Source: Hexactinellida sp. DTS-2022
Taxonomy: Eukaryota > Porifera > Hexactinellida
DNA length: 64,000 nt
NCBI GenBank assembly: GCA_028753945.1
Contig: JAPNXP010000012.1
Coordinates: 4,176,501-4,240,500, forward strand
Reading direction: 5' to 3'
Shown here in pieces: positions 11,710 to 57,681 of the stretch (positions are counted from its first letter, which is position 1; each line of letters opens with the position of its first letter). Under the pieces are notes generated by a model that saw nothing but the letters and a program-made list of their open reading frames with translations, was not told the origin of the DNA and did no database searches. Made by a program: the position numbers and the translations under genes.

Positions 11710-14700
11710 ATGGCTTCTTTACTCTCGCCCCTACTCTCAGATCTCCCCAAGTACAAACGACACATTTCATTCTTTGAGCAGGAGTTCACACGAGTCTGCA
11801 GTGGAATTAACCTCGAGGCCATTTGTTTTAACCCGGTCTGCAAATCTGTCCTTAACTTCGCGGGACTGGTCATAATCAAGTACCCTGGGGTGAAGAGTTG
11901 TGTCTACCAGGACGTGTTGCCCTACCTTAGGTGTCCATCCTGCGGCGGTCAGCTGCAATCAGAGAGAGTCAAGGGCGCCGTGTTCGTGCGTTGCGAGGCT
12001 AAAATTAAGATTGGTGAGGAGTCCGTCGTGTTTCGAGTTAGAGGAGAAGAGACTGTTTTGTGGGAACTCCCCTACCAAGGGGCAGAGGTGTCAATAGCCG
12101 TCTTAGGCAGTGACCCGGAGCCCAAAACTGACTCGAAAGAGTTTCTCAATCCTACTGACGGAGTGAATCTCTCGGCTATCTGTCGCAACAACGAATGTCA
12201 GGCTTCAAAGTCAAAAGATGGCTTGGTGGTTATTAAGGTGGGACGAGTGGAGTTACGAACTTACCAAGAATTGCTGAAAAACCGATCTTGTCCCTCCTGT
12301 AACCACCCTCTGGAGCCACGCTGTTTTCGCGGGGTCATTTTCAATTCGTGCCACGGGGAAGTTGAGATAGCTGGGAATGTACGAAGGTTCGACGCTCACC
12401 AAAAGCCCGAGCTCTGTATCATAGACTTGGCAGATTATATGGCTACTATCCGCATTAGACCGACCATAACAGACATACACTCGGCTCCTAATAGCAGTCC
12501 AGAAACAGTCAGATCTAAACAAGAGCAGCCCTCCTTGCCATCAAAAATCAATGATAGAACTGAAGTTCTGCAACGGGGTGGAAATATGTCTTACGAATCT
12601 GTCTGCCATGGGATAAATTTCGAGGCTCATTGTCCCAATGAGAGGTGCTCAGCGTATAAAGAAAACAACGGGTTTGTTAACATAATGTCCGGACACATGA
12701 TGGCTTGCGATTACCGAGCTGCTATCCAGGCCCTGTCCTGCCCTTCTTGTAGCATCTCAATCCCCCCTACCTGCTTCCAGGGCGTGGCCCTTGTGTGTTG
12801 TCGAGGTGAGATACTGATTGGGGAAGAAAAGAAGTTTTTCGAACCAAAAGGAAGCGAAATACACAAGATCTCAATCCCCCATGACGGCACCAGGGTGAAA
12901 ATAGAGTTGTACACCAAAGAGGAATACAAATCGACCCATACTGAGTTAGGATCTAGCGATAGGACTTATACGAAGGTTTGTGATGGAGTTAATTTCATAG
13001 CTTTCTGTAAGAACCCCAGCTGTCAGGCCTTCAAGGAGTACGACGGGTGCGTTAGCATCAAGAGGGATGAGCAGTTTATAGAAAGGAATGGATTCTCCGC
13101 GACACGATGTAACTACAGCAGAGAAATACAGGGGCTAGTATGTCCCTCTTGTGGGAATCCTCTGAACACTCACTTTGTACAGGGAGTAGCACTCGTGAGG
13201 TGTAAAGGAACCGTAGAATCCAGCGGAAAAAGTGAAAACTTCTTAGCTGAAAGTAACAATATAATACGTCATACGTTCGATAGGTCTGATGCTAGTGCTG
13301 TTATCGAATATGTGATCCCTGAAACGATAACAGATTCAATCATTCCTAAGAAAGGGCTGAATCTACTTGCCAAATGTACTAACTCTTCTTGTCCCTCACA
13401 ATCCCAAGCCTCACTGGAGGGTATCGTTAGGTTTCACATGGGAGAAGTCACAGACTGTAGACTCCAGCGATTAATCCAAGGTAGGATTTGTCCCAATTGC
13501 CAACATGCCCTCCCTCCGGCCAGTTTTATAATCGCTATCTTTTCTCAGTGCACTGCTCGAGTTAAGACGAGTGATCTTGTAGTATCGTATATATTCGGTC
13601 AAAGAACGGAAGCTGTTCCCATTTGTATCAGCAAGGATCCTGTAGTCGACATCCTACCTATTCATACGAAGGATATATCCATGGAATCTTATGGATCTCC
13701 ATATAGGCGAATGAAAAGAGGAATGAATCTGAAAGTTATTTGTTCAAACTTAGATTGCGCTTCCAAAAAGTTGAGTGATGGCATAATAATAATATCCCTC
13801 CAAGAAATGAAATTGTACACGTTCAAAGATATATTCTCCACTGTGAAATGTCCCTCTTGTAACAACACACTCTCCCACATGATCCTACTGACTCTCTCCT
13901 TCATGCACTGCAGATCAGAGATGTTAGTTGAGAAAGAGCGGTTTATCCTTGAGGCTGGGAATGGGGAAGTTATCGACTTCAAACCCGATTCATCCGCTTC
14001 TGACGTTACAATCCATGTAATGGAAGAGGAGGCAAAATCTTCTGTTCTATTCCCAGATATTCAGGGAGAAGGATCGACCAGTAAGGGAGGAGATTTCACC
14101 CACGCATCAGTCTGCCATGGTCTCAACTTCATAGTTCGCTGCTCCAATCCCGCGTGTGCATCTGTTAGAAACAGCGAATATGTTATGATACAAGCCGGAC
14201 ACATTATAGACCGAGATATCAGACGAGATATGCAATCGCTGAATTGCTCTTCTTGCGAGACTGAGATACTCCCTCATCAGGTTCAAAGGGTAGCGTTCCT
14301 CTGCTGCTCAGGGGAGATTACGATTGGCGGAAAGAAGGAGATATTCAACCCCACCGGACAGGCCACTTCTGATTTCAAAATCCCAAGCGACAACTCACCT
14401 GTCCTTTTGAAAGTTTACCACAGAGAATACCACCTCAAACAAAATCCTGCTATAGGGTTTCTGCAGAAGACCTACACCAAGCACCACAATGGAATTAACT
14501 TTCATTGCTATTGTAAGAATCCATCCTGTCAAACTGTTAAGGAAGTTGACGGCTACGGACTTGTTATTGTCCAGAGAGACGACTTTATGGTCTGGAAGTA
14601 TGGGTACAGCCCCTCTACCTGCTACTACAGTCATGAGATCTCACAGCTTAACTGTACCTCCTGCGGGTTTCATCTCAGGAAGTACTACTGTTGGGGGGTC

Positions 14701-14838
14701 GGACTCCTGCACTGTTCCGGGACCATAACCAGAGACGGGTCCCCTATTGAGTCGTTCCGCTCCAGCATGGGACAGGTTGCAGAGTATCAACTGGACACGG
14801 GAGACACTTCTTTGAAGATAGAATTCCATATTATATGA
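11710..14838 (+). CDS. Protein of eight cysteine-rich repeats, unknown function
   Basis: Single-exon gene for 1042 residues. The chain consists of eight units of 110-150 residues. Each opens with a GINLEAIC-like motif followed by C-x4-C (AICFNPVC, AICRNNEC, AHCPNERC, AFCKNPSC, AKCTNSSC, VICSNLDC, VRCSNPAC, CYCKNPSC), then a hydrophobic strand, then C-x2-C (CPSC or close), then a strand ending in one more Cys. The four spaced cysteines suggest a zinc-ribbon-like fold. Units 1-4 and 5-8 correspond pairwise: 3 resembles 7 (CHGIN, GHMMACDYRAA versus GHIIDRDIRRD) and 4 resembles 8 (a longer insert ending in a CNYSREI/CYYSHEI motif), so a four-unit block was duplicated. The GINL-C-x4-C...CPxC pattern recalls Cys-rich modules in uncharacterised proteins of rotifers, fungi and sponges, but I cannot name a family. 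No signal peptide or membrane segment is seen, so it is likely intracellular. Confidence 0.9.
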   Translation: MASLLSPLLSDLPKYKRHISFFEQEFTRVCSGINLEAICFNPVCKSVLNFAGLVIIKYPGVKSCVYQDVLPYLRCPSCGGQLQSERVKGAVFVRCEAKIKIGEESVVFRVRGEETVLWELPYQGAEVSIAVLGSDPEPKTDSKEFLNPTDGVNLSAICRNNECQASKSKDGLVVIKVGRVELRTYQELLKNRSCPSCNHPLEPRCFRGVIFNSCHGEVEIAGNVRRFDAHQKPELCIIDLADYMATIRIRPTITDIHSAPNSSPETVRSKQEQPSLPSKINDRTEVLQRGGNMSYESVCHGINFEAHCPNERCSAYKENNGFVNIMSGHMMACDYRAAIQALSCPSCSISIPPTCFQGVALVCCRGEILIGEEKKFFEPKGSEIHKISIPHDGTRVKIELYTKEEYKSTHTELGSSDRTYTKVCDGVNFIAFCKNPSCQAFKEYDGCVSIKRDEQFIERNGFSATRCNYSREIQGLVCPSCGNPLNTHFVQGVALVRCKGTVESSGKSENFLAESNNIIRHTFDRSDASAVIEYVIPETITDSIIPKKGLNLLAKCTNSSCPSQSQASLEGIVRFHMGEVTDCRLQRLIQGRICPNCQHALPPASFIIAIFSQCTARVKTSDLVVSYIFGQRTEAVPICISKDPVVDILPIHTKDISMESYGSPYRRMKRGMNLKVICSNLDCASKKLSDGIIIISLQEMKLYTFKDIFSTVKCPSCNNTLSHMILLTLSFMHCRSEMLVEKERFILEAGNGEVIDFKPDSSASDVTIHVMEEEAKSSVLFPDIQGEGSTSKGGDFTHASVCHGLNFIVRCSNPACASVRNSEYVMIQAGHIIDRDIRRDMQSLNCSSCETEILPHQVQRVAFLCCSGEITIGGKKEIFNPTGQATSDFKIPSDNSPVLLKVYHREYHLKQNPAIGFLQKTYTKHHNGINFHCYCKNPSCQTVKEVDGYGLVIVQRDDFMVWKYGYSPSTCYYSHEISQLNCTSCGFHLRKYYCWGVGLLHCSGTITRDGSPIESFRSSMGQVAEYQLDTGDTSLKIEFHII

Positions 14839-15596: not shown

Positions 15597-16650
15597 TCTA
15601 TATTATTAAATCTCGATTGTTGTTTGTGTGTGTGTTTGTGTGTGTGTGTGTTTGTCCGGATTGTATTAAAGTGATGGGGGAATAGAAACCGCAATTAATA
15701 TTGGGATATAAACTAACTTTCAAATGTTATAATAGGTAAACAAGTATGCTAAACACGAATTTCGCGTTTATAAATTTCTCATATTAATATTTGTTGTTGT
15801 TGTTTACACAAAATAGGTAAACAAATTAATTAAAATTCAAAATCAACCTAGAAGTTAGCTTTCAACGAGTATTATAGGTAAACAAGTATGCTGAACACAA
15901 ATTTCGCATTTATAAATTTTTAATATGAATATTTGTTGTTGTTGTTGTTGACACAAATAAGTAAACAAATTAATTAAAATTCAAAATCAACCTAGAAGTT
16001 AGCTTTCAACGGGTATAATAGGTAAACAAGTATGCTGAACACGAATTTCGCATTTATAAATTTATAATATGAATATTTGTTGTTGTTGTTGACACAAATA
16101 AGTGAACAAATTAATTAAAATTCAAAATCAACCTAGAAGTTAGCTTTCAACGGGTATAATAGGTAAACAAGTATGCTGAACACGAATTTCGCATTTATAA
16201 ATTTATAATATGAATATTTGTTGTTGTTGTTGACACAAATAAGTGAACAAATTAATTAAAATTCAAAATCAACCTAGAAGTTAGCTTTCAACGGGTATAA
16301 TAGGTAAACAATTATGCTGTACACGAATCTCGCGTTTATAAATTTATAATATGAATATTTGTTGTCGTTGTTGACACAAAATATGTAAACAAATTAATGA
16401 AAATTCAAAATCAACTCAGAAGTTAGCTTTCAACGGGGATTGTAGGTAAACGAGTATGCTGAACACGAATTTCGCTTTTATAAATTTAAAATATGAAAAA
16501 CAAGTTAAACATGGAAATCTTATAAAGGGATGTCCCTTTCCACCATTTTCCATGGTGGAAAGGGTGAGGAGTAAGGCCGCACAGCGGCCGTTAACTTGAG
16601 GTGCGTAGCACCGATCCGTCGCAAAGCGACCGAGACCGAAGGGCTCGTAA
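15597..16650 (+). mobile_element. Helitron-like non-autonomous element with satellite core (copy A)
   Basis: It begins TCTATATTATTAAATCTCG directly after an A, as Helitron 5' ends do. A GT-rich tract follows, then GTATTAAAGTGATGGGGGAA. The core is a tandem array of six units of 141-144 bp, with start points 15734, 15876, 16020, 16161, 16302 and 16444; each carries a TTG microsatellite and GGTAAACAAGTATGCTGAAC. The right end has a run of short hairpins (GCCGCACAGCGGC, GGTGCGTAGCACC, GTCGCAAAGCGAC). A satellite core with microsatellite and terminal hairpins is the layout of Helentron-associated elements (DINE-1/HINE, oyster pearl elements). The exact 3' end is uncertain. Confidence 0.6.
15734..16500 (+). 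repeat. Tandem repeat, six units of about 142 bp
   Basis: Consecutive units start at 15734, 15876, 16020, 16161, 16302 and 16444 (spacing 142, 144, 141, 141, 142). Each contains GGTAAACAAGTATGCTGAAC, AATTTCGC, TATAAATTT, a GTTGTTGTT run of variable length, ACACAAATA and AACAAATTAATTAAAATTCA. Units 3 to 5 are nearly identical. A seventh, diverged unit sits at 16794 in the next element. Confidence 0.95.
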
Positions 16651-50565: not shown

Positions 50566-53500
50566 ACAAAGCCACTGCTACCAACTCTCCCATTCCTCCT
50601 TGCTACCTTTATATTATTATGCCCTGTAACTGTGTCCATTCGAGTTACTGATGGCAGCCTTTCATTTGCGAACCCACAGATTGTAATCGCACTCCAGTTC
50701 GATTCATCTGTATCTGGACCAGAGCTTAATCTAAATGGCATTGGACTATCAAATACCCTGACCTTTGATACCAATTGTACATTTGTTAATTTATCTATCA
50801 CGATTCAGAATCTCACCGGCTCTTTTCAGCATGACCTTATCTTATCCCTGCCCGACAGTAATAATATAGTTACTGTAACTAGTGAAAGCAGTACTCCTTG
50901 TCTCGCAAATAACCAATCAACCTTCACAACGCTGCCGCCTGATTTTGTTCCTGGATCTTCATTAACATTAATCCCATTACAAGTAATTCCCGATACGACG
51001 TCTCCTAACATATCATCTTCTGGTGTTGTCGTTAACCTCAACCAGGGGAGTATATCCATCCTATTCTCAGAACTTGTAGATCTTAATACCATTGATATCT
51101 CTCTTCTAAGATTATATGGGTCTGCTGTTGCGGGTTCATTTTCTTTCGTGGCTTTCACAGCTCTCACCAATTCTAATAACAAGGCAGGTATCAGTAATAC
51201 TTACGCGTTTTCAATCGAGGTGTTTGAGCTCCAGACTATCGTAAACGTCTGTTCCTCTATTTGCTATCTCCATATTAGTCCTGGTGACGTAGTGAGTGAT
51301 GTTTTTGGAAATACTTTGAGTATACAAAATGTCACTGTTCTTCCCACAAACTTCACTACTTTCACTTCTTCGCAATTCGTCGCTTCCTTTGTTCTTCAGC
51401 TTGTCACTCCTACCCGAGTTAATGTTACAATTACTCCTCCAGCACAGCGGGAGGCTGACGTCATAAATTACCTACTTTACGAGTTCCCCCGATTTGTGAA
51501 CTACTATCATTCGAACTGTGACTATCCTCTTGCTTACGACTACCAGAGAAGATCCAATTCTACACAATGGGATACCGGACTTCCCTTTGGTGGCAATTTT
51601 CCTCCTTGTGTTAACGGTAGTGACTATAGGTGTTACGCCTCTAAAGATTTGAGCTTCGTTATCGAGTTCTTCTCTGGTTATCTTACGAGTTTCATTCTTG
51701 TCACAGAATTCCCGCAAATAACTTCCAATTCGGCTTCAAGTTCTCTTTCGCCTGTTTCTCTTTATGCAAATTTCTTGCAATTCCAGATACGCGTTCAACC
51801 AAACCCTATGAGACGCTCTATACAACAGAGTCCTAATCCGGTTGCAAACCGTATCGTAGTACAATGGCAAGTTGATTCTAGTTTCTGTGATCGACATCAA
51901 CTCACATTATACTATGGGGGAAATTCTTTTCCCAGTTCTAGTTTTAAGTACATTAACCTGGATACGAATATAACATGTGGGGCCAAGTTTGTTAATATTT
52001 ATTCTACTTCAGGAAGCATTAGTGTAATTCCAGAGATACGTATCATCGCGCCACATATTAATATTCCTTTAGACACCTGTATCTCCGTAAGGTTAGGAAG
52101 CTTGAATCAAGGAGGAATTCCTTCTTCCAGAATTGATAGACCAGTCATTGACAGGGTTAGTGGTTTATCTCCCTCGAATGCTATTTACCTAAAGTGGGAT
52201 ACCTTCACGCCTTCAACTGGTTATACCATTGATTATTTTAACATCTATATTATTCCTGTTTACGCTCTAAGATATGATGGTGGGTCTTGTAGTAATGTTG
52301 ATTCCCAAACTACTCCGAATGACTTTACGTTCCTACCTACAGAATACTACAAGTATGGTGTTAGTATTCCGTCTGAGGATTTCCCGTTCAACTGTCCCCC
52401 TCCTCCAGGATTGGCTTTTCCGTATGATTGTTTTTCGCTTTCTAGTGACAACGAAGATCTTACATTTTCACATAGTTTTCCATATGCCATCAGTATAATA
52501 GTTGAGGCTGTCACCCGCGAGTTGAGCTCGTATGCTATTGTTAAGGTTAGAAGCTATCCTCAGAACTTTACAAGTTACACTTTGAATCAAGGAAGAGATG
52601 GATTAAATTATCAACAGTTCACTTGGAATAGTCTGCTCTGCCAAGTAACAGATTCTTTCCTCTTTATACATCTCTCCTTTTTTGATGAGGAAATTAATAG
52701 AGATGTATTCTTTTCAGAAGTATTTCCTTGCCCACCTGGAATGGGAATTGATTTACAAGTACAAAACTCTATTTCTTACAAATCATTTTCTAATTATTTT
52801 TCAGAAGTAACCACCCTTGATGGACTTATGTGTCTTTTAAGTTATGAGTCATCACAGATTAATGTTTTCTCAGGCTTTCAAGAGATATTAGTGGAATTAA
52901 TTGACTTCAGTTATATTGATTACGAAACTATACTGGTTAGCATTCAAACATTTAATTTCGATTCTAGTTCTACGAATATACTTATTGTACCAGATTCTGA
53001 AATGATTCTAGACACCGATATAGGTACAGCAAACATTTGTCCAGGGAATATGCCAGATCTTCCACCTTATTTCATAGGCTTTCGCTCCAATTTCACCCTA
53101 AGAAACATGAATAATCTTACATGTGAAAATACTAGTGATTACACTTGCACCACAGTTCAAAGCACTATTAATATTCCTCTTCGAATAATTCCTGGGTTGG
53201 GATTCAGGATACGAGTTGTATTTCAAGGCAATGAATTCACTATAAGTACAAATAACCAAGGTCCTTTCTACCCAATTGGAAATCTGCAATCAATACGCCT
53301 TCAGAGTGAATTAAATACGAATACAACTCTGGCTACTGCTAATAGCATTATGGTCAGCTGGAATGTAGACTACTATTGTCCTCCAAACTCGTATATCAGT
53401 GTAGCTTGGATAAGGTCGTTCTCAGAAAAACTGATTCCAAGGAGGAGGAGAGGACTTACTCCAATAGATATTGATGCTACGATGCCTTGTGATGTTGGAT

Positions 53501-56500
53501 TCTATGTAATAAGTGATCTTGCTTTCAATTGGGGATATAAGATTGATGGATATGTTTTCTTTAATTCAACAACTGTGATCTTTTCACAAACGTGCCCTGT
53601 CATTACCATAGCATTTTCAGACGCATTCAGCACATCTCCAATACTGACAGGCATCCAATTGTTGGATCTCTCAACTATACTAGTGTCTTGGAACAGTATC
53701 CCAGGTATAGAATCTCCATACACTTTGCTAGCCTACCCTTCATCACTCGGTACATTTAATGAATCAATCACGACTCAATTTACTCCTAGCACTGCTAACC
53801 CGCAAACTATAGCATTTACCAATCCTGATTTTATTTCCACTTATTTCGAAATGTGTCTCAATTCCAGTCCAGCCATTACCTGCTCCAAAGCAACCACTGC
53901 TAATACTAATGCTGTCATCTCAATCATCCCGGGATACGAATATATATTGGCACTTGCTTTTCAAATAGGAACTCAAATTCAGATTGATATCTTGGAAAAT
54001 AGATATATCCCAATGGAATTGCTTGTAAGTGAGGTCTCCGCTTCAGGATTCAATGTTTCTTATTCCTACAATTTGAATACTGCAATCTGCACTCCAGGTG
54101 TATCTACTGCGTATTACTATGAAGAGATGGGTTCAATTGGCACCGTATTCCCCGTCAATCTGTGTACAATAGGCACTGGATTTCTTATATCTTTTGCACA
54201 ACTATCTCAATCGCGATTTCTGTTCACATTCCCTTACGTCAGTATAAATATTCCTGGATTCAATTTAACATCTCCTGCGGCCACAGGTATAATCTTGAAC
54301 CTACCACTCTCTTTTCTTCCTATCAGCGCTGCACCAATGATTACCAATGTTTCTATACCATCGGACATAACGTCCAACTTATTTCAGGTTTCTTGGACCT
54401 CTCCTCCTAACATTCCTATCCCTCAACAGTTTGACACTTTCATCTTGTACGCATACCCAGAGAGTCAAGTATATCTCCAAGGTTACGCGTCTTGCCCAAC
54501 TAATATCAATTCCTTGGAAGACTTAGGGAATTTTATTTTTCCTATTCTATTGCAAGAATTTCTTAACCCATTCAATGATGTCTGCCCCCCACCCCAAGGC
54601 CAATTCTCCTTTTGCAAGGAATCCACTACCAACAGTGTAGAATTACCGCTCATCGCATTTCTTAATTATCGATTCGGAGTTGTAGCTAGATACAATGGTG
54701 GTCTCATTACCTACGCATCTGAATACTCCGCTTCTGCTCAGGCTTCTGAAAACCTCTCTCTCGCTCTCAACCTAGCCTACCAAGTGACCCCTGCTTCCAT
54801 TACAGTTAATTGGAACTCACAAGTGTCTTTCTGTGGCAATGCAAGATTCTTCTTTATCCTGAACTCATCATTTATACCTAATTTTGTTGCTTGTACAGCT
54901 GATAGTTATATAATAAATTTCCTTCAACCGCTCACTACATACACATTAGAATATATATTATTTTACGATGCATCTATCCTTGCCCCTCAAGCAGGCATTT
55001 GTATAACAAGTTCGACTCAGCTTGCATTCGATCCATTACCAGTGACAACTTCCTTCTGCACCCCTGTCAATCCCTGTGGGTCTGTAGGCGTGTGTTCAGA
55101 AGGGTTTTTTAACAGTTCTTTCCATTGTGACTGCAACACCGGATACATGTTCGATGGAAACACCTGCGTGGACATCAATGAATGCAATGCAATACCAAGT
55201 GTCTGTATTAATGCTGGTTGTCTCAACAGCGTTGGGAACTTCGCTTGTACATGCTTCGAAGGTTATACGCCAATGGGCGCATCTGTAATCGTGTGTGAGG
55301 ATATTGACGAGTGTGAAATAGCTGACAACTGTGTTAACGGAATTTGCACTAATCTCCTGTCTCCGGAAAACTACCAATGTGATTGTAACTCAGATTTTGA
55401 AGGCATCAACTGTGCGATTCCGATTGCGTCTCCGACTTGTCCTTCTATAACAGAGACCACGCTACTCAGTGACAACAACATTATTTTCCCAGTGACAGAA
55501 TACGGATTTGTGGCTACTATCTCCTGCTCTCAATTGGATATAGAACTGTTCGGCAGTATTACACGGTTCTGCGGAGATACTGGTGACTGGGGAACAGTTA
55601 ACATTGACGATTGTCAGAGAATCATATTCGTAGCGATAGAGCTAACAACAACACTAAGTCTGACTCGTACTCTAACCCCAGTGGAGACAGTCGCGCTCTC
55701 AGACGACTTGGCAACTGCAACAGAAGTGAGCTTATTCCCTGGAGAAATATCCGCAGCCTCTGTAGGCGTTGTTGTCATTGCAGAGGCGTTATCGACTTTA
55801 ACTGGAGACGAACTGAGAGAGAGTCTGAGTAGTGTGCAGGAAAATATAGTAGTGACAGGGTCCAATATTCTGAGACGAGAGAACAGTGCTGCTTTCGCTT
55901 CGGCTACGCCTTCCGAGGCGCAGAGCTATGTCAACAATCTGGTGGATGGGATTCAGGATATCGGCATTTTGATTGGGTCAATTGCTGAGGATAATGCAAC
56001 CATAGTACTGGAGATATCAGAGCCCACTGTAGCACTCATCGTAACTGTCGTAAGGGACGTAACAGAGCCATTGGTGCTGGGGTCTAACTTGAGTATGTCT
56101 TTGGGAAGCAATGCTTCTGCCGTGATGGCAGCCCAGACCTCGGTCTCTATTCCCGCTGCTGTGTTCCAAGCAAACGACGACGGAAACGGTATAGCGGTGA
56201 GTGTGGCTCTGTTCTCAACTGTTCAAGAGTTAATCAGTGAAGTGTTAGTGAATGCCAGCGAGCAAGGGCCTAACGGAGTGACAGATTCCCTTGCCAGCTC
56301 ATTAGCTAGCGTAAATCTATTCACGAGAAACGGACAGCGAATCAGTCAATTGGTAGAGCCGATTACCATATTATTCGTGGTAAACACCAGTCTAATTGTG
56401 GATAATTCTCAGCAGACTACACAACTCAGATGCGCGTCTTCTCGCATGCTGTCTGATGGCTGGAGCTTCCTCTATGTGGATCTAGCCAATCCTGGAGAAG

Positions 56501-57681
56501 TGCCTCCAAATCCTGCTAACTGTGTCGCCACGCATTTGACACATTTTGGAGTCCTGGTATCAGTGACATCACAGGATTTTTCAGCAGCAGAACTTCTAGC
56601 ATTACAAATCTTAACCTACCTAACTTGTGGCATTTCTATCGTATTCTTATTACTATCTATAGCTGCATATTCAATTTTGTGGTGGAAAACTCGCAATCAA
56701 CAGGAAAACATTTTCAACAAAGATGCAACAGTACTACATGTCAACTTCGCCGTTTCACTGTTGCTAGCCCTCGTATTCTTCCTCATCTCTGATGCTGCCT
56801 ACAGCAATGAGGGTTTATGCAAAGCTGTCTTATTATTCCAGTACTACTTTTGGCTCAGCGTATTCACTGCTTCTCTCTCCATCGGTATCTATCTGTTGAT
56901 CAAGATATTCGCTTGGTCCAGCCAGAGACGCTTCTGGTACTATTTGGTGCTTCTCACCTGGGGCCTCCCCATGCCCCTACTCATCATCACGCCGGTAATA
57001 GCCCGCGATTATCTCATTAACACGCAAGAGATGGTGTGTTGGTTCAGCAAGGAGCCTAATTACGCGAATTTAGGATTCATAGTGCCTATGATCGTCATTA
57101 CTTTAACCAACTTTGTTATCTTGATCATAACAGCAATTGTTCTATTCAAGATATCAAAAGGCAACAAAGGAATGGTACAACAAATAAGAGGAGTACTCAT
57201 AGCTTCTTTTATTCTCTCTCCAATCCTTGGTCTACCCTGGCTTTTCTCCATCATAGCGACAGCTCCCACTTCAGCCACTGCTTTCTTTTTCACTATCATA
57301 CTGGGACTACAGGGTACTTTATTCGCTATCCTATACCCACTGAGAACTCCAGAAATAATAGATTATGTGTTGAGATGTAGAAATCCGTATACCGGTATCA
57401 AGATGACTCAGACACATTCTTCCAATCCCTCGCATCCAACTCCCACCGCTATTAAGTTCAGAGTCAAGCGTGCAGACCACAGCACTGCCAGCGATTCAGC
57501 CTCTATAGTTAAATCAAAAGCAGAACAATCTGAGCATGGTCACGAAAATATAGAACTCGAGAACATTAAGCCTGTGACCGTAAGTGTTAGCAAGAGTGAG
57601 AAAGAAGAGGGTATCTCCTCCCTTCCATTCATAACGGGTAGTCCCTCTGTTCCTCGGTATGAGAGTCTTCATAACAATTAG
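50566..57681 (+). CDS. Large adhesion-type GPCR (EGF, GAIN/GPS, 7TM)
   Basis: One giant exon; residues are counted from 50632. The frame opens right after a 3' splice site (ATTTTCTCTATAG, ending 50565) with no ATG, and its first residues (PLLPTLPFLLATFILLCPVT) look like a signal peptide. An upstream exon must supply the start. The ectodomain has about 1470 residues of Asn/Ser/Thr-rich beta-type sequence with recurring V-x-W strands (fibronectin-III-like). EGF-like domains follow at about 1475-1600, two with the calcium-binding DINEC/DIDEC start. Then come a CCP/sushi-like module (about 1603-1660) and a GAIN domain to about 1980. The GPS is degenerate in cysteines but keeps the HLT cleavage tripeptide (CVATHLTHFGVL). 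Seven hydrophobic helices span about 1986-2245, then a Ser-rich tail. Ligand unknown. Base composition is AT-rich, unlike the pump gene. Confidence 0.92.
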   Translation, partial: TKPLLPTLPFLLATFILLCPVTVSIRVTDGSLSFANPQIVIALQFDSSVSGPELNLNGIGLSNTLTFDTNCTFVNLSITIQNLTGSFQHDLILSLPDSNNIVTVTSESSTPCLANNQSTFTTLPPDFVPGSSLTLIPLQVIPDTTSPNISSSGVVVNLNQGSISILFSELVDLNTIDISLLRLYGSAVAGSFSFVAFTALTNSNNKAGISNTYAFSIEVFELQTIVNVCSSICYLHISPGDVVSDVFGNTLSIQNVTVLPTNFTTFTSSQFVASFVLQLVTPTRVNVTITPPAQREADVINYLLYEFPRFVNYYHSNCDYPLAYDYQRRSNSTQWDTGLPFGGNFPPCVNGSDYRCYASKDLSFVIEFFSGYLTSFILVTEFPQITSNSASSSLSPVSLYANFLQFQIRVQPNPMRRSIQQSPNPVANRIVVQWQVDSSFCDRHQLTLYYGGNSFPSSSFKYINLDTNITCGAKFVNIYSTSGSISVIPEIRIIAPHINIPLDTCISVRLGSLNQGGIPSSRIDRPVIDRVSGLSPSNAIYLKWDTFTPSTGYTIDYFNIYIIPVYALRYDGGSCSNVDSQTTPNDFTFLPTEYYKYGVSIPSEDFPFNCPPPPGLAFPYDCFSLSSDNEDLTFSHSFPYAISIIVEAVTRELSSYAIVKVRSYPQNFTSYTLNQGRDGLNYQQFTWNSLLCQVTDSFLFIHLSFFDEEINRDVFFSEVFPCPPGMGIDLQVQNSISYKSFSNYFSEVTTLDGLMCLLSYESSQINVFSGFQEILVELIDFSYIDYETILVSIQTFNFDSSSTNILIVPDSEMILDTDIGTANICPGNMPDLPPYFIGFRSNFTLRNMNNLTCENTSDYTCTTVQSTINIPLRIIPGLGFRIRVVFQGNEFTISTNNQGPFYPIGNLQSIRLQSELNTNTTLATANSIMVSWNVDYYCPPNSYISVAWIRSFSEKLIPRRRRGLTPIDIDATMPCDVGFYVISDLAFNWGYKIDGYVFFNSTTVIFSQTCPVITIAFSDAFSTSPILTGIQLLDLSTILVSWNSIPGIESPYTLLAYPSSLGTFNESITTQFTPSTANPQTIAFTNPDFISTYFEMCLNSSPAITCSKATTANTNAVISIIPGYEYILALAFQIGTQIQIDILENRYIPMELLVSEVSASGFNVSYSYNLNTAICTPGVSTAYYYEEMGSIGTVFPVNLCTIGTGFLISFAQLSQSRFLFTFPYVSINIPGFNLTSPAATGIILNLPLSFLPISAAPMITNVSIPSDITSNLFQVSWTSPPNIPIPQQFDTFILYAYPESQVYLQGYASCPTNINSLEDLGNFIFPILLQEFLNPFNDVCPPPQGQFSFCKESTTNSVELPLIAFLNYRFGVVARYNGGLITYASEYSASAQASENLSLALNLAYQVTPASITVNWNSQVSFCGNARFFFILNSSFIPNFVACTADSYIINFLQPLTTYTLEYILFYDASILAPQAGICITSSTQLAFDPLPVTTSFCTPVNPCGSVGVCSEGFFNSSFHCDCNTGYMFDGNTCVDINECNAIPSVCINAGCLNSVGNFACTCFEGYTPMGASVIVCEDIDECEIADNCVNGICTNLLSPENYQCDCNSDFEGINCAIPIASPTCPSITETTLLSDNNIIFPVTEYGFVATISCSQLDIELFGSITRFCGDTGDWGTVNIDDCQRIIFVAIELTTTLSLTRTLTPVETVALSDDLATATEVSLFPGEISAASVGVVVIAEALSTLTGDELRESLSSVQENIVVTGSNILRRENSAAFASATPSEAQSYVNNLVDGIQDIGILIGSIAEDNATIVLEISEPTVALIVTVVRDVTEPLVLGSNLSMSLGSNASAVMAAQTSVSIPAAVFQANDDGNGIAVSVALFSTVQELISEVLVNASEQGPNGVTDSLASSLASVNLFTRNGQRISQLVEPITILFVVNTSLIVDNSQQTTQLRCASSRMLSDGWSFLYVDLANPGEVPPNPANCVATHLTHFGVLVSVTSQDFSAAELLALQILTYLTCGISIVFLLLSIAAYSILWWKTRNQQENIFNKDATVLHVNFAVSLLLALVFFLISDAAYSNEGLCKAVLLFQYYFWLSVFTASLSIGIYLLIKIFAWSSQRRFWYYLVLLTWGLPMPLLIITPVIARDYLINTQEMVCWFSKEPNYANLGFIVPMIVITLTNFVILIITAIVLFKISKGNKGMVQQIRGVLIASFILSPILGLPWLFSIIATAPTSATAFFFTIILGLQGTLFAILYPLRTPEIIDYVLRCRNPYTGIKMTQTHSSNPSHPTPTAIKFRVKRADHSTASDSASIVKSKAEQSEHGHENIELENIKPVTVSVSKSEKEEGISSLPFITGSPSVPRYESLHNN

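What the first reader, a model, noticed from the sequence alone, without database searches (positions are those of the whole stretch)
11710..14838. Eight-unit cysteine-repeat protein made by duplicating a four-unit block
All eight units share C-x4-C, C-x2-C and a later Cys. Units 3/7 and 4/8 resemble each other more than their neighbours, and 1/5 and 2/6 fit the same register. This implies a four-domain ancestor that duplicated as a block. I cannot assign a family, and the protein has no other domain. A chain of probable zinc modules could be a scaffold or a recognition array.
Basis: partly seen in the sequence, partly recalled or inferred. Interest (0 to 1): 0.75.

Follow-up and report, generated by a model that had tools for sequence, protein, structure and literature searches.

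The report
Eight-fold array of ubiquitin-partner zinc modules
An animal gene encodes a protein made of eight copies of a small cysteine-rich module that elsewhere is found joined to ubiquitin and to ubiquitin- or ADP-ribose-attaching enzymes; the copying was probably not of a four-unit block, and single modules fit no family in the libraries checked.

Summary
Window 11710-14838 is one uninterrupted 1042-residue frame with exactly eight units in the stated Cys register (shuffles give none), under purifying selection against three intact paralogues (dN/dS 0.27-0.34 over units 1-2 and 5-8). The four-unit-block history is not supported. Units 3-4 are an old copy of the last pair 7-8 (39% over 250 residues). 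Unit 5 groups with unit 2; pairing 1 with 5 is rejected in the larger tree (p-AU 0.017), pairing 2 with 6 is not (0.097). Intact paralogues have nine units, three different ones where the window has 3-4. The same genome has 11 single-unit ORFs, five with a ubiquitin match above Pfam's cut-off; none of the 101 ubiquitin matches found lies near the five multi-unit genes. Outside, the unit occurs clearly in 6 of 232 genomes of a chlamydial phylum, fused to ubiquitin, ankyrin, U-box or PARP domains, and by predicted fold in giant-virus RING/ubiquitin proteins. No Pfam model passes its cut-off on 24 single units. Best reading: a ubiquitin-system zinc module, freed from its ubiquitin and amplified into a multivalent binding array. 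Ligand unknown.

The parts
11710..14838 (+). Single-frame coding sequence, 1042 aa, eight units, no ubiquitin match found in it
11710..11796 (+). N-terminal leader (aa 1-29), similar in the paralogues; no ubiquitin match
11797..12120 (+). Unit 1 (counterpart of paralogue unit 1, 63-70%)
12154..12477 (+). Unit 2 (counterpart of paralogue unit 2, 66-69%); groups with unit 5
12604..12927 (+). Unit 3, old copy of unit 7 (paralogue unit 8); structure model of this unit pLDDT 90.4
12979..13317 (+). Unit 4, old copy of unit 8 (paralogue unit 9)
13348..13671 (+). Unit 5 (counterpart of paralogue unit 6, 61-70%); groups with unit 2
13714..14037 (+). Unit 6 (counterpart of paralogue unit 7, 72-79%)
14113..14436 (+). 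Unit 7 (counterpart of paralogue unit 8, 66-71%)
14485..14835 (+). Unit 8, terminal unit, middle part 11 residues longer than in unit 1 (counterpart of paralogue unit 9, 67-76%)

Best explanation
The gene encodes a string of eight copies of a roughly 110-residue, five-cysteine, probably zinc-binding module. In its relatives the module is often the C-terminal partner of a ubiquitin or ubiquitin-like domain, or is fused to ubiquitin- and ADP-ribose-attaching enzymes. In this animal lineage one such module lost its ubiquitin-like domain and was amplified into an array; units were later copied in pairs or lost, so intact paralogues have nine units and the window gene eight. Shown: units, homology, one clade of array units, the old copying of the last pair, purifying selection, domain partners elsewhere. 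Inferred: C-x4-C and C-x2-C hold a zinc ion; units are independent beads on flexible linkers; the module binds a ubiquitin-system component, substrate or chain; the array works by multivalent binding as an adaptor or reader, with no catalysis.
For: Eight-fold register and invariant residues. dN/dS 0.27-0.34 for the window gene against three intact paralogues over units 1-2 and 5-8. Eleven single-unit ORFs in the same genome, on C12 (6), C15 (4) and C9 (1); a ubiquitin match above the Pfam cut-off in the same ORF in 5 of 11, and for one more in a separate ORF just upstream. None of the 101 PF00240 matches found in the genome lies in the window or beside the C17, C14 or C3 multi-unit genes. Profile comparison, array units against single units: probability 98.8, E 6e-17; against 8 chlamydial units: 97.0, E 1.2e-10. 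Chlamydial frames: two ubiquitins + unit next to a U-box + weaker unit, ankyrin + unit, ubiquitin-like + unit, PARP catalytic domain + unit in two genomes (3.9e-7; 2.8e-9). Predicted fold of unit 3 confident (pLDDT 90.4, pTM 0.82); in the viral library 4 matches at E <= 0.001, each probability 1.00, two of them named 'Ring and ubiquitin domain protein' (Barrevirus) and 'Ubiquitin' (Pandoravirus salinus). Two-unit model: two domains with the same order of elements and a low-confidence link at residues 114-136. Multi-unit rows one clade, 98/98.
Against: No binding or metal data. Six of 11 single-unit ORFs have no ubiquitin match above cut-off in the same ORF; three of these six have one below it, and three, two of them on C15, showed none, so the link is not universal. 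The module also occurs with PARP and ankyrin domains, and once before a C-terminal stretch that looks transmembrane by eye, so the ligand could lie outside the ubiquitin system. Two of the four viral fold matches had no name at hand. The two-unit model is only pLDDT 65.5 from five rows, so the beads-on-a-string reading is weak. The whole window protein does pass Pfam's cut-off for Trm112p (32.2 bits against 22), though of the 24 units only unit 4 matches it, at 13.1 bits, E 0.093. Unit 4 also comes close to the Zn_ribbon_TFIIB cut-off (21.3 bits against 22, over profile 2-23 of 41). Expression was not tested.
Confidence: 0.5

Rival explanations
1. Nucleic-acid or protein recognition array: each unit is a zinc-ribbon-like finger that reads DNA, RNA or peptide, and the link to ubiquitin is only ancestral.
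For: Weak zinc-ribbon matches: Zn_ribbon_TFIIB in 6 of 24 units at E <= 1, best 1.7e-4 on unit 4 (21.3 bits against a cut-off of 22); DNA_ligase_ZBD in 6 of 24. Serial arrangement; units differ strongly from each other (15-39%), as readers of different targets would.
Against: No Pfam match reached its cut-off on any of the 24 units at E <= 0.1, and the zinc-ribbon matches on units 1, 2 and 4 cover only the CxxC half. The outside partners seen are ubiquitin, U-box, PARP and ankyrin domains; no nucleic-acid-binding domain was among the Pfam matches of the six chlamydial frames or the one.
Confidence: 0.2
2. Host-microbe conflict protein: the array is a decoy or sensor that competes with ubiquitin-linked modules delivered by chlamydial symbionts or carried by giant viruses.
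For: The module is found in 6 of 232 genomes of the chlamydial phylum with clear scores and by fold in giant-virus proteins; a small clustered gene family in the animal with decaying members (C3 copy in two overlapping frames, C1 remnant).
Against: No expression or infection data; no sign of positive selection in pairwise averages; chlamydial or viral sequence in the animal's genome was not looked for.
Confidence: 0.2
3. Four-domain ancestor duplicated as one block.
For: Pairs 3/7 and 4/8 are real; pairing 2 with 6 is not formally rejected (p-AU 0.097); in the tree without outside relatives neither 1/5 nor 2/6 is rejected.
Against: Units 2 and 5 group (97/95), 1 with 5 is rejected in the larger tree (p-AU 0.0168), identities of 1/5 and 2/6 are at background; nine-unit paralogues have three other units in place of 3-4.
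Confidence: 0.05

Closest known systems
Single-unit ORFs of the same genome, several with a ubiquitin-like domain (C12, C15, C9; no family name)
   Same: Same module with the five invariant cysteines, each in one uninterrupted frame
   Different: One unit, and in 5 of 11 a ubiquitin match above cut-off in the same ORF; the window protein has eight units and no ubiquitin match
Chlamydial ubiquitin / U-box / ankyrin / PARP fusion frames with one unit (G227, G084, G159, G162)
   Same: Homologous unit (hhalign 97.0; a chlamydial unit against a C12 unit 43% over query residues 1-84, E 1.6e-9)
   Different: Single unit, fused to enzymes, ankyrin or ubiquitin; bacterial
Giant-virus 'Ring and ubiquitin domain protein' (Barrevirus A0A3G4ZQ93) and 'Ubiquitin' (Pandoravirus salinus S4W648)
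   Same: Predicted fold matches the unit model, Foldseek E 1.7e-4 and 2.2e-4
   Different: Viral, named after ubiquitin/RING domains; their sequences were not read or compared here
Trm112p (PF03966) and Zn_ribbon_TFIIB (PF13453)
   Same: CPxC zinc-knuckle motif; the whole window protein passes the Trm112p cut-off
   Different: The best Trm112p stretch covers profile positions 8-35 of 40 spread over 126 residues of two units; of 24 single units only unit 4 matches, at 13.1 bits. Zn_ribbon_TFIIB reaches 21.3 bits on unit 4, under its cut-off of 22

Membership tests
Unnamed ubiquitin-partner five-cysteine module | Invariant G, C-x4-C, C-x2-C and a fifth Cys | tested here: met
   G and five Cys invariant in the 14-row alignment of window, single and chlamydial units and in 29 of 29 units of this genome
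Unnamed ubiquitin-partner five-cysteine module | Profile homology of array units to single-unit and chlamydial rows | tested here: met
   hhalign 98.8 and 97.0
Unnamed ubiquitin-partner five-cysteine module | Ubiquitin-like domain in the same protein | tested here: not met
   No Pfam ubiquitin match in the window protein and none of the 101 genome matches found lies in the window; so it is built from the same module but is not a ubiquitin fusion. Five of 11 single-unit ORFs meet this feature above cut-off
Zinc-binding protein | Bound zinc at the invariant cysteines | not testable with these tools
Trm112p (PF03966) | Domain-level match over most of the 40-position profile in one unit | tested here: not met
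   Whole-protein score 32.2 bits is above the cut-off, but only 1 of 24 single units matches, unit 4, at 13.1 bits over positions 8-24
Trm112p (PF03966) | Trm112 fold | tested here: inconclusive
   Not in the listed rows of the PDB comparisons, which does not exclude it
   3-7 and 4-8 pair, 2 pairs with 5, 1-5 rejected in the larger tree; 2-6 alone not rejected, and neither rejected in the smaller tree

The most novel reading that the evidence does not exclude
An undescribed, confidently folded ubiquitin-system zinc module is shared by animals, environmental Chlamydiae and giant viruses. In this animal it was cut free of ubiquitin and amplified into eight- and nine-unit arrays that act as multivalent readers or decoys in a conflict with microbes using the same module.
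Probability: 0.2. Interest if true: 0.75.

Novelty: new variant of a known kind. Interest (0 to 1): 0.5.

Why it matters
It ties an unassigned cysteine-repeat protein to the ubiquitin system and points to a module that passes no Pfam cut-off unit by unit, has no clear solved structure in the comparison made, and recurs beside ubiquitin, E3-type and PARP domains in chlamydial genomes. A testable question follows: does the module bind ubiquitin, a ubiquitin enzyme or ADP-ribosylated targets, and what does an eight-fold array of it do in an animal?

Full report
Observation. The frame at 11710-14838 on the + strand runs from an ATG to a TGA over 1042 codons without interruption. A fixed pattern of G-x-N, C-x4-C, C-x2-C and a fifth Cys matches eight times and in none of 1000 residue shuffles. 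In 24 aligned units of the window and its paralogues the G and five Cys are invariant. Against three intact paralogues dN/dS (Nei-Gojobori, own script) is 0.30-0.34 over units 1-2 and 0.27-0.28 over units 5-8, at dS of 0.55-0.67: a coding gene under constraint.

Genome setting. The window lies at C4:4176501-4240500 of a 112.4-Mb, 18-contig genome. Neighbouring frames include an adhesion-type GPCR with GAIN and EGF domains, an NHL-repeat protein, a Sir2 protein, a P450 and a P-type ATPase, which points to an animal; my guess that it is a sponge rests on no call. Four paralogues: C17 (1166 aa), C14a (1160) and C14b (1165), a head-to-head pair, and a C3 copy that falls into two overlapping frames of 329 and 834 aa. 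C1 holds a 95-codon remnant, 44% like window unit 7 over 79 residues.

Unit history. The three intact paralogues have nine units. Window units 1, 2, 5, 6, 7, 8 correspond to paralogue units 1, 2, 6, 7, 8, 9 at 61-79% identity. Paralogue units 3, 4, 5 have no counterpart in the window. In their place the window has units 3 and 4, which resemble paralogue units 8 and 9 (36-39% and 37-42%). The pair 3-4 aligns with the pair 7-8 end to end, linker included, at 39% over 250 residues. In the tree of 42 multi-unit rows, W4 joins the unit-9 clade (100/99) and W3 the unit-8 clade (81/66). In a tree of 43 rows (24 multi-unit rows of the window, C17 and C3; 11 single; 8 chlamydial) the multi-unit rows are one clade (98/98), W3 joins the unit-8 clade at 98/90, W4 the unit-9 clade at 96/91, and W2 groups with W5 and C17 unit 3 at 97/95. 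The 18 C14 rows were left out of this second tree as close relatives of the C17 rows. Holding 1 with 5 is rejected (p-AU 0.0168), 2 with 6 is not (0.097). Holding W3 with W7 alone is rejected (0.00482) and W4 with W8 alone is not (0.0719). In the first tree none of these four was rejected (0.114, 0.146, 0.066, 0.089). So the last two units were copied as a pair, probably before the paralogues separated, and a four-unit block is not supported. Whether the ancestor had eleven units followed by different losses, or the window lineage replaced units 3-5 with a fast-changing copy, is open: the tree favours the first, and counting events favours the second.

Single-unit relatives. Six-frame searches of the genome with the whole protein and with single units converge on 11 single-unit ORFs: six on C12 (5929-5942 kb), four on C15 (4133-4138 kb), one on C9; a 39-codon piece at C12:5939.8 kb next to a ubiquitin match looks like a twelfth, decayed one. 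The tool calls such counts lower bounds. Of ten of the 11 scanned against Pfam, four pass the ubiquitin cut-off, three have a ubiquitin match below it, and three have none. The genome-wide PF00240 search finds one above cut-off in the same ORF in 5 of 11 (the four, and the one not scanned), and one in a separate ORF upstream of the 168-aa C12 ORF. The C12 cluster also holds a four-fold ubiquitin-like ORF. None of the 101 PF00240 matches found lies at a multi-unit gene. The multi-unit branch has therefore most likely lost the ubiquitin-like domain; the root of the tree is set by the chlamydial rows, and the reverse order is not excluded by the domain count alone.

Outside relatives. A DNA pattern scan of the prokaryote collection gave seven stretches, one real: a Candidatus Neptunochlamydia MAG, where the unit follows a ubiquitin-like C-terminus and a linker (by eye) in a frame with one internal stop, at a contig end. 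A profile scan of 232 genomes of its phylum gave 18 at E <= 0.01, of which I count six as sure. Their frames carry two ubiquitins plus unit (PF00240 1.3e-45), with the neighbouring frame a U-box (2e-10) plus a weaker unit (profile E 1.5e-6 over positions 1-55); ankyrin plus unit; ubiquitin-like (8.3e-12) plus unit; and PARP catalytic domain plus unit in two genomes (3.9e-7 and 2.8e-9). One more frame (G102) has no Pfam match. Paper PMC4209131 (passages seen) reports expansions of F-box, BTB and RING/U-box families in Parachlamydiaceae; 'zinc', 'ubiquitin-like' and 'PARP' do not occur in its main text.

Function. The module keeps company with ubiquitin, E3-type and PARP domains in chlamydial genomes, by fold with ubiquitin and RING proteins in giant viruses, and with ubiquitin-like domains in this animal. 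The simplest reading is a small zinc-stabilised binding module of the ubiquitin system, and of the array a multivalent adaptor or reader. The ligand, the zinc and the expression are not shown. Library checks: at E <= 0.1 no Pfam match reached its cut-off on any of 24 units; the nearest is Zn_ribbon_TFIIB on unit 4, 21.3 bits against 22, over half the profile. In NCBIfam two families matched one unit each of 29 at E <= 0.01, best 0.0039, both unrelated. The whole protein passes the Trm112p cut-off, most likely as the sum of weak CPxC matches.

Verdict. Real, conserved, and more interesting in its relatives than in its count of units. New variant of a known kind: a ubiquitin-partner module turned into an array.

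Noticed in passing
window 15717-16497: Tandem array, period 141 bases, 5.5 copies, 93% matches, just downstream of the gene.
   Followed up: no
L010 3263-6763 and L011 2955-6458 (C14): Two close nine-unit genes (95% protein identity) head to head, start codons about 2.2 kb apart.
   Followed up: partly
L012 3831-7147 (C3): Fifth multi-unit copy lies in two overlapping frames, with unit 2 shortened and unit 3 split between them: probably decaying. Two long frames with several hydrophobic stretches, alike by eye, lie upstream on the other strand.
   Followed up: partly
L065 3850-4947 (C12): Frame with four ubiquitin-like repeats inside the single-unit cluster (PF00240 4e-52).
   Followed up: no
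L073 (Candidatus Neptunochlamydia MAG), contig end: Ubiquitin-like C-terminus plus linker plus unit in a bacterial contig, interrupted by one in-frame stop; at a contig end, so contamination by host DNA is not excluded.
   Followed up: partly
L081 and L082 (unnamed chlamydial genomes): PARP-like catalytic domain fused to the unit in two genomes; in L082 a second frame with a unit follows. A frame at the edge of L080 looks like the same PARP type by eye.
   Followed up: partly
window 50566-57681: 2371-codon uninterrupted adhesion-GPCR frame (7tm_2, GAIN, EGF): several long uninterrupted genes in this window.
   Followed up: no
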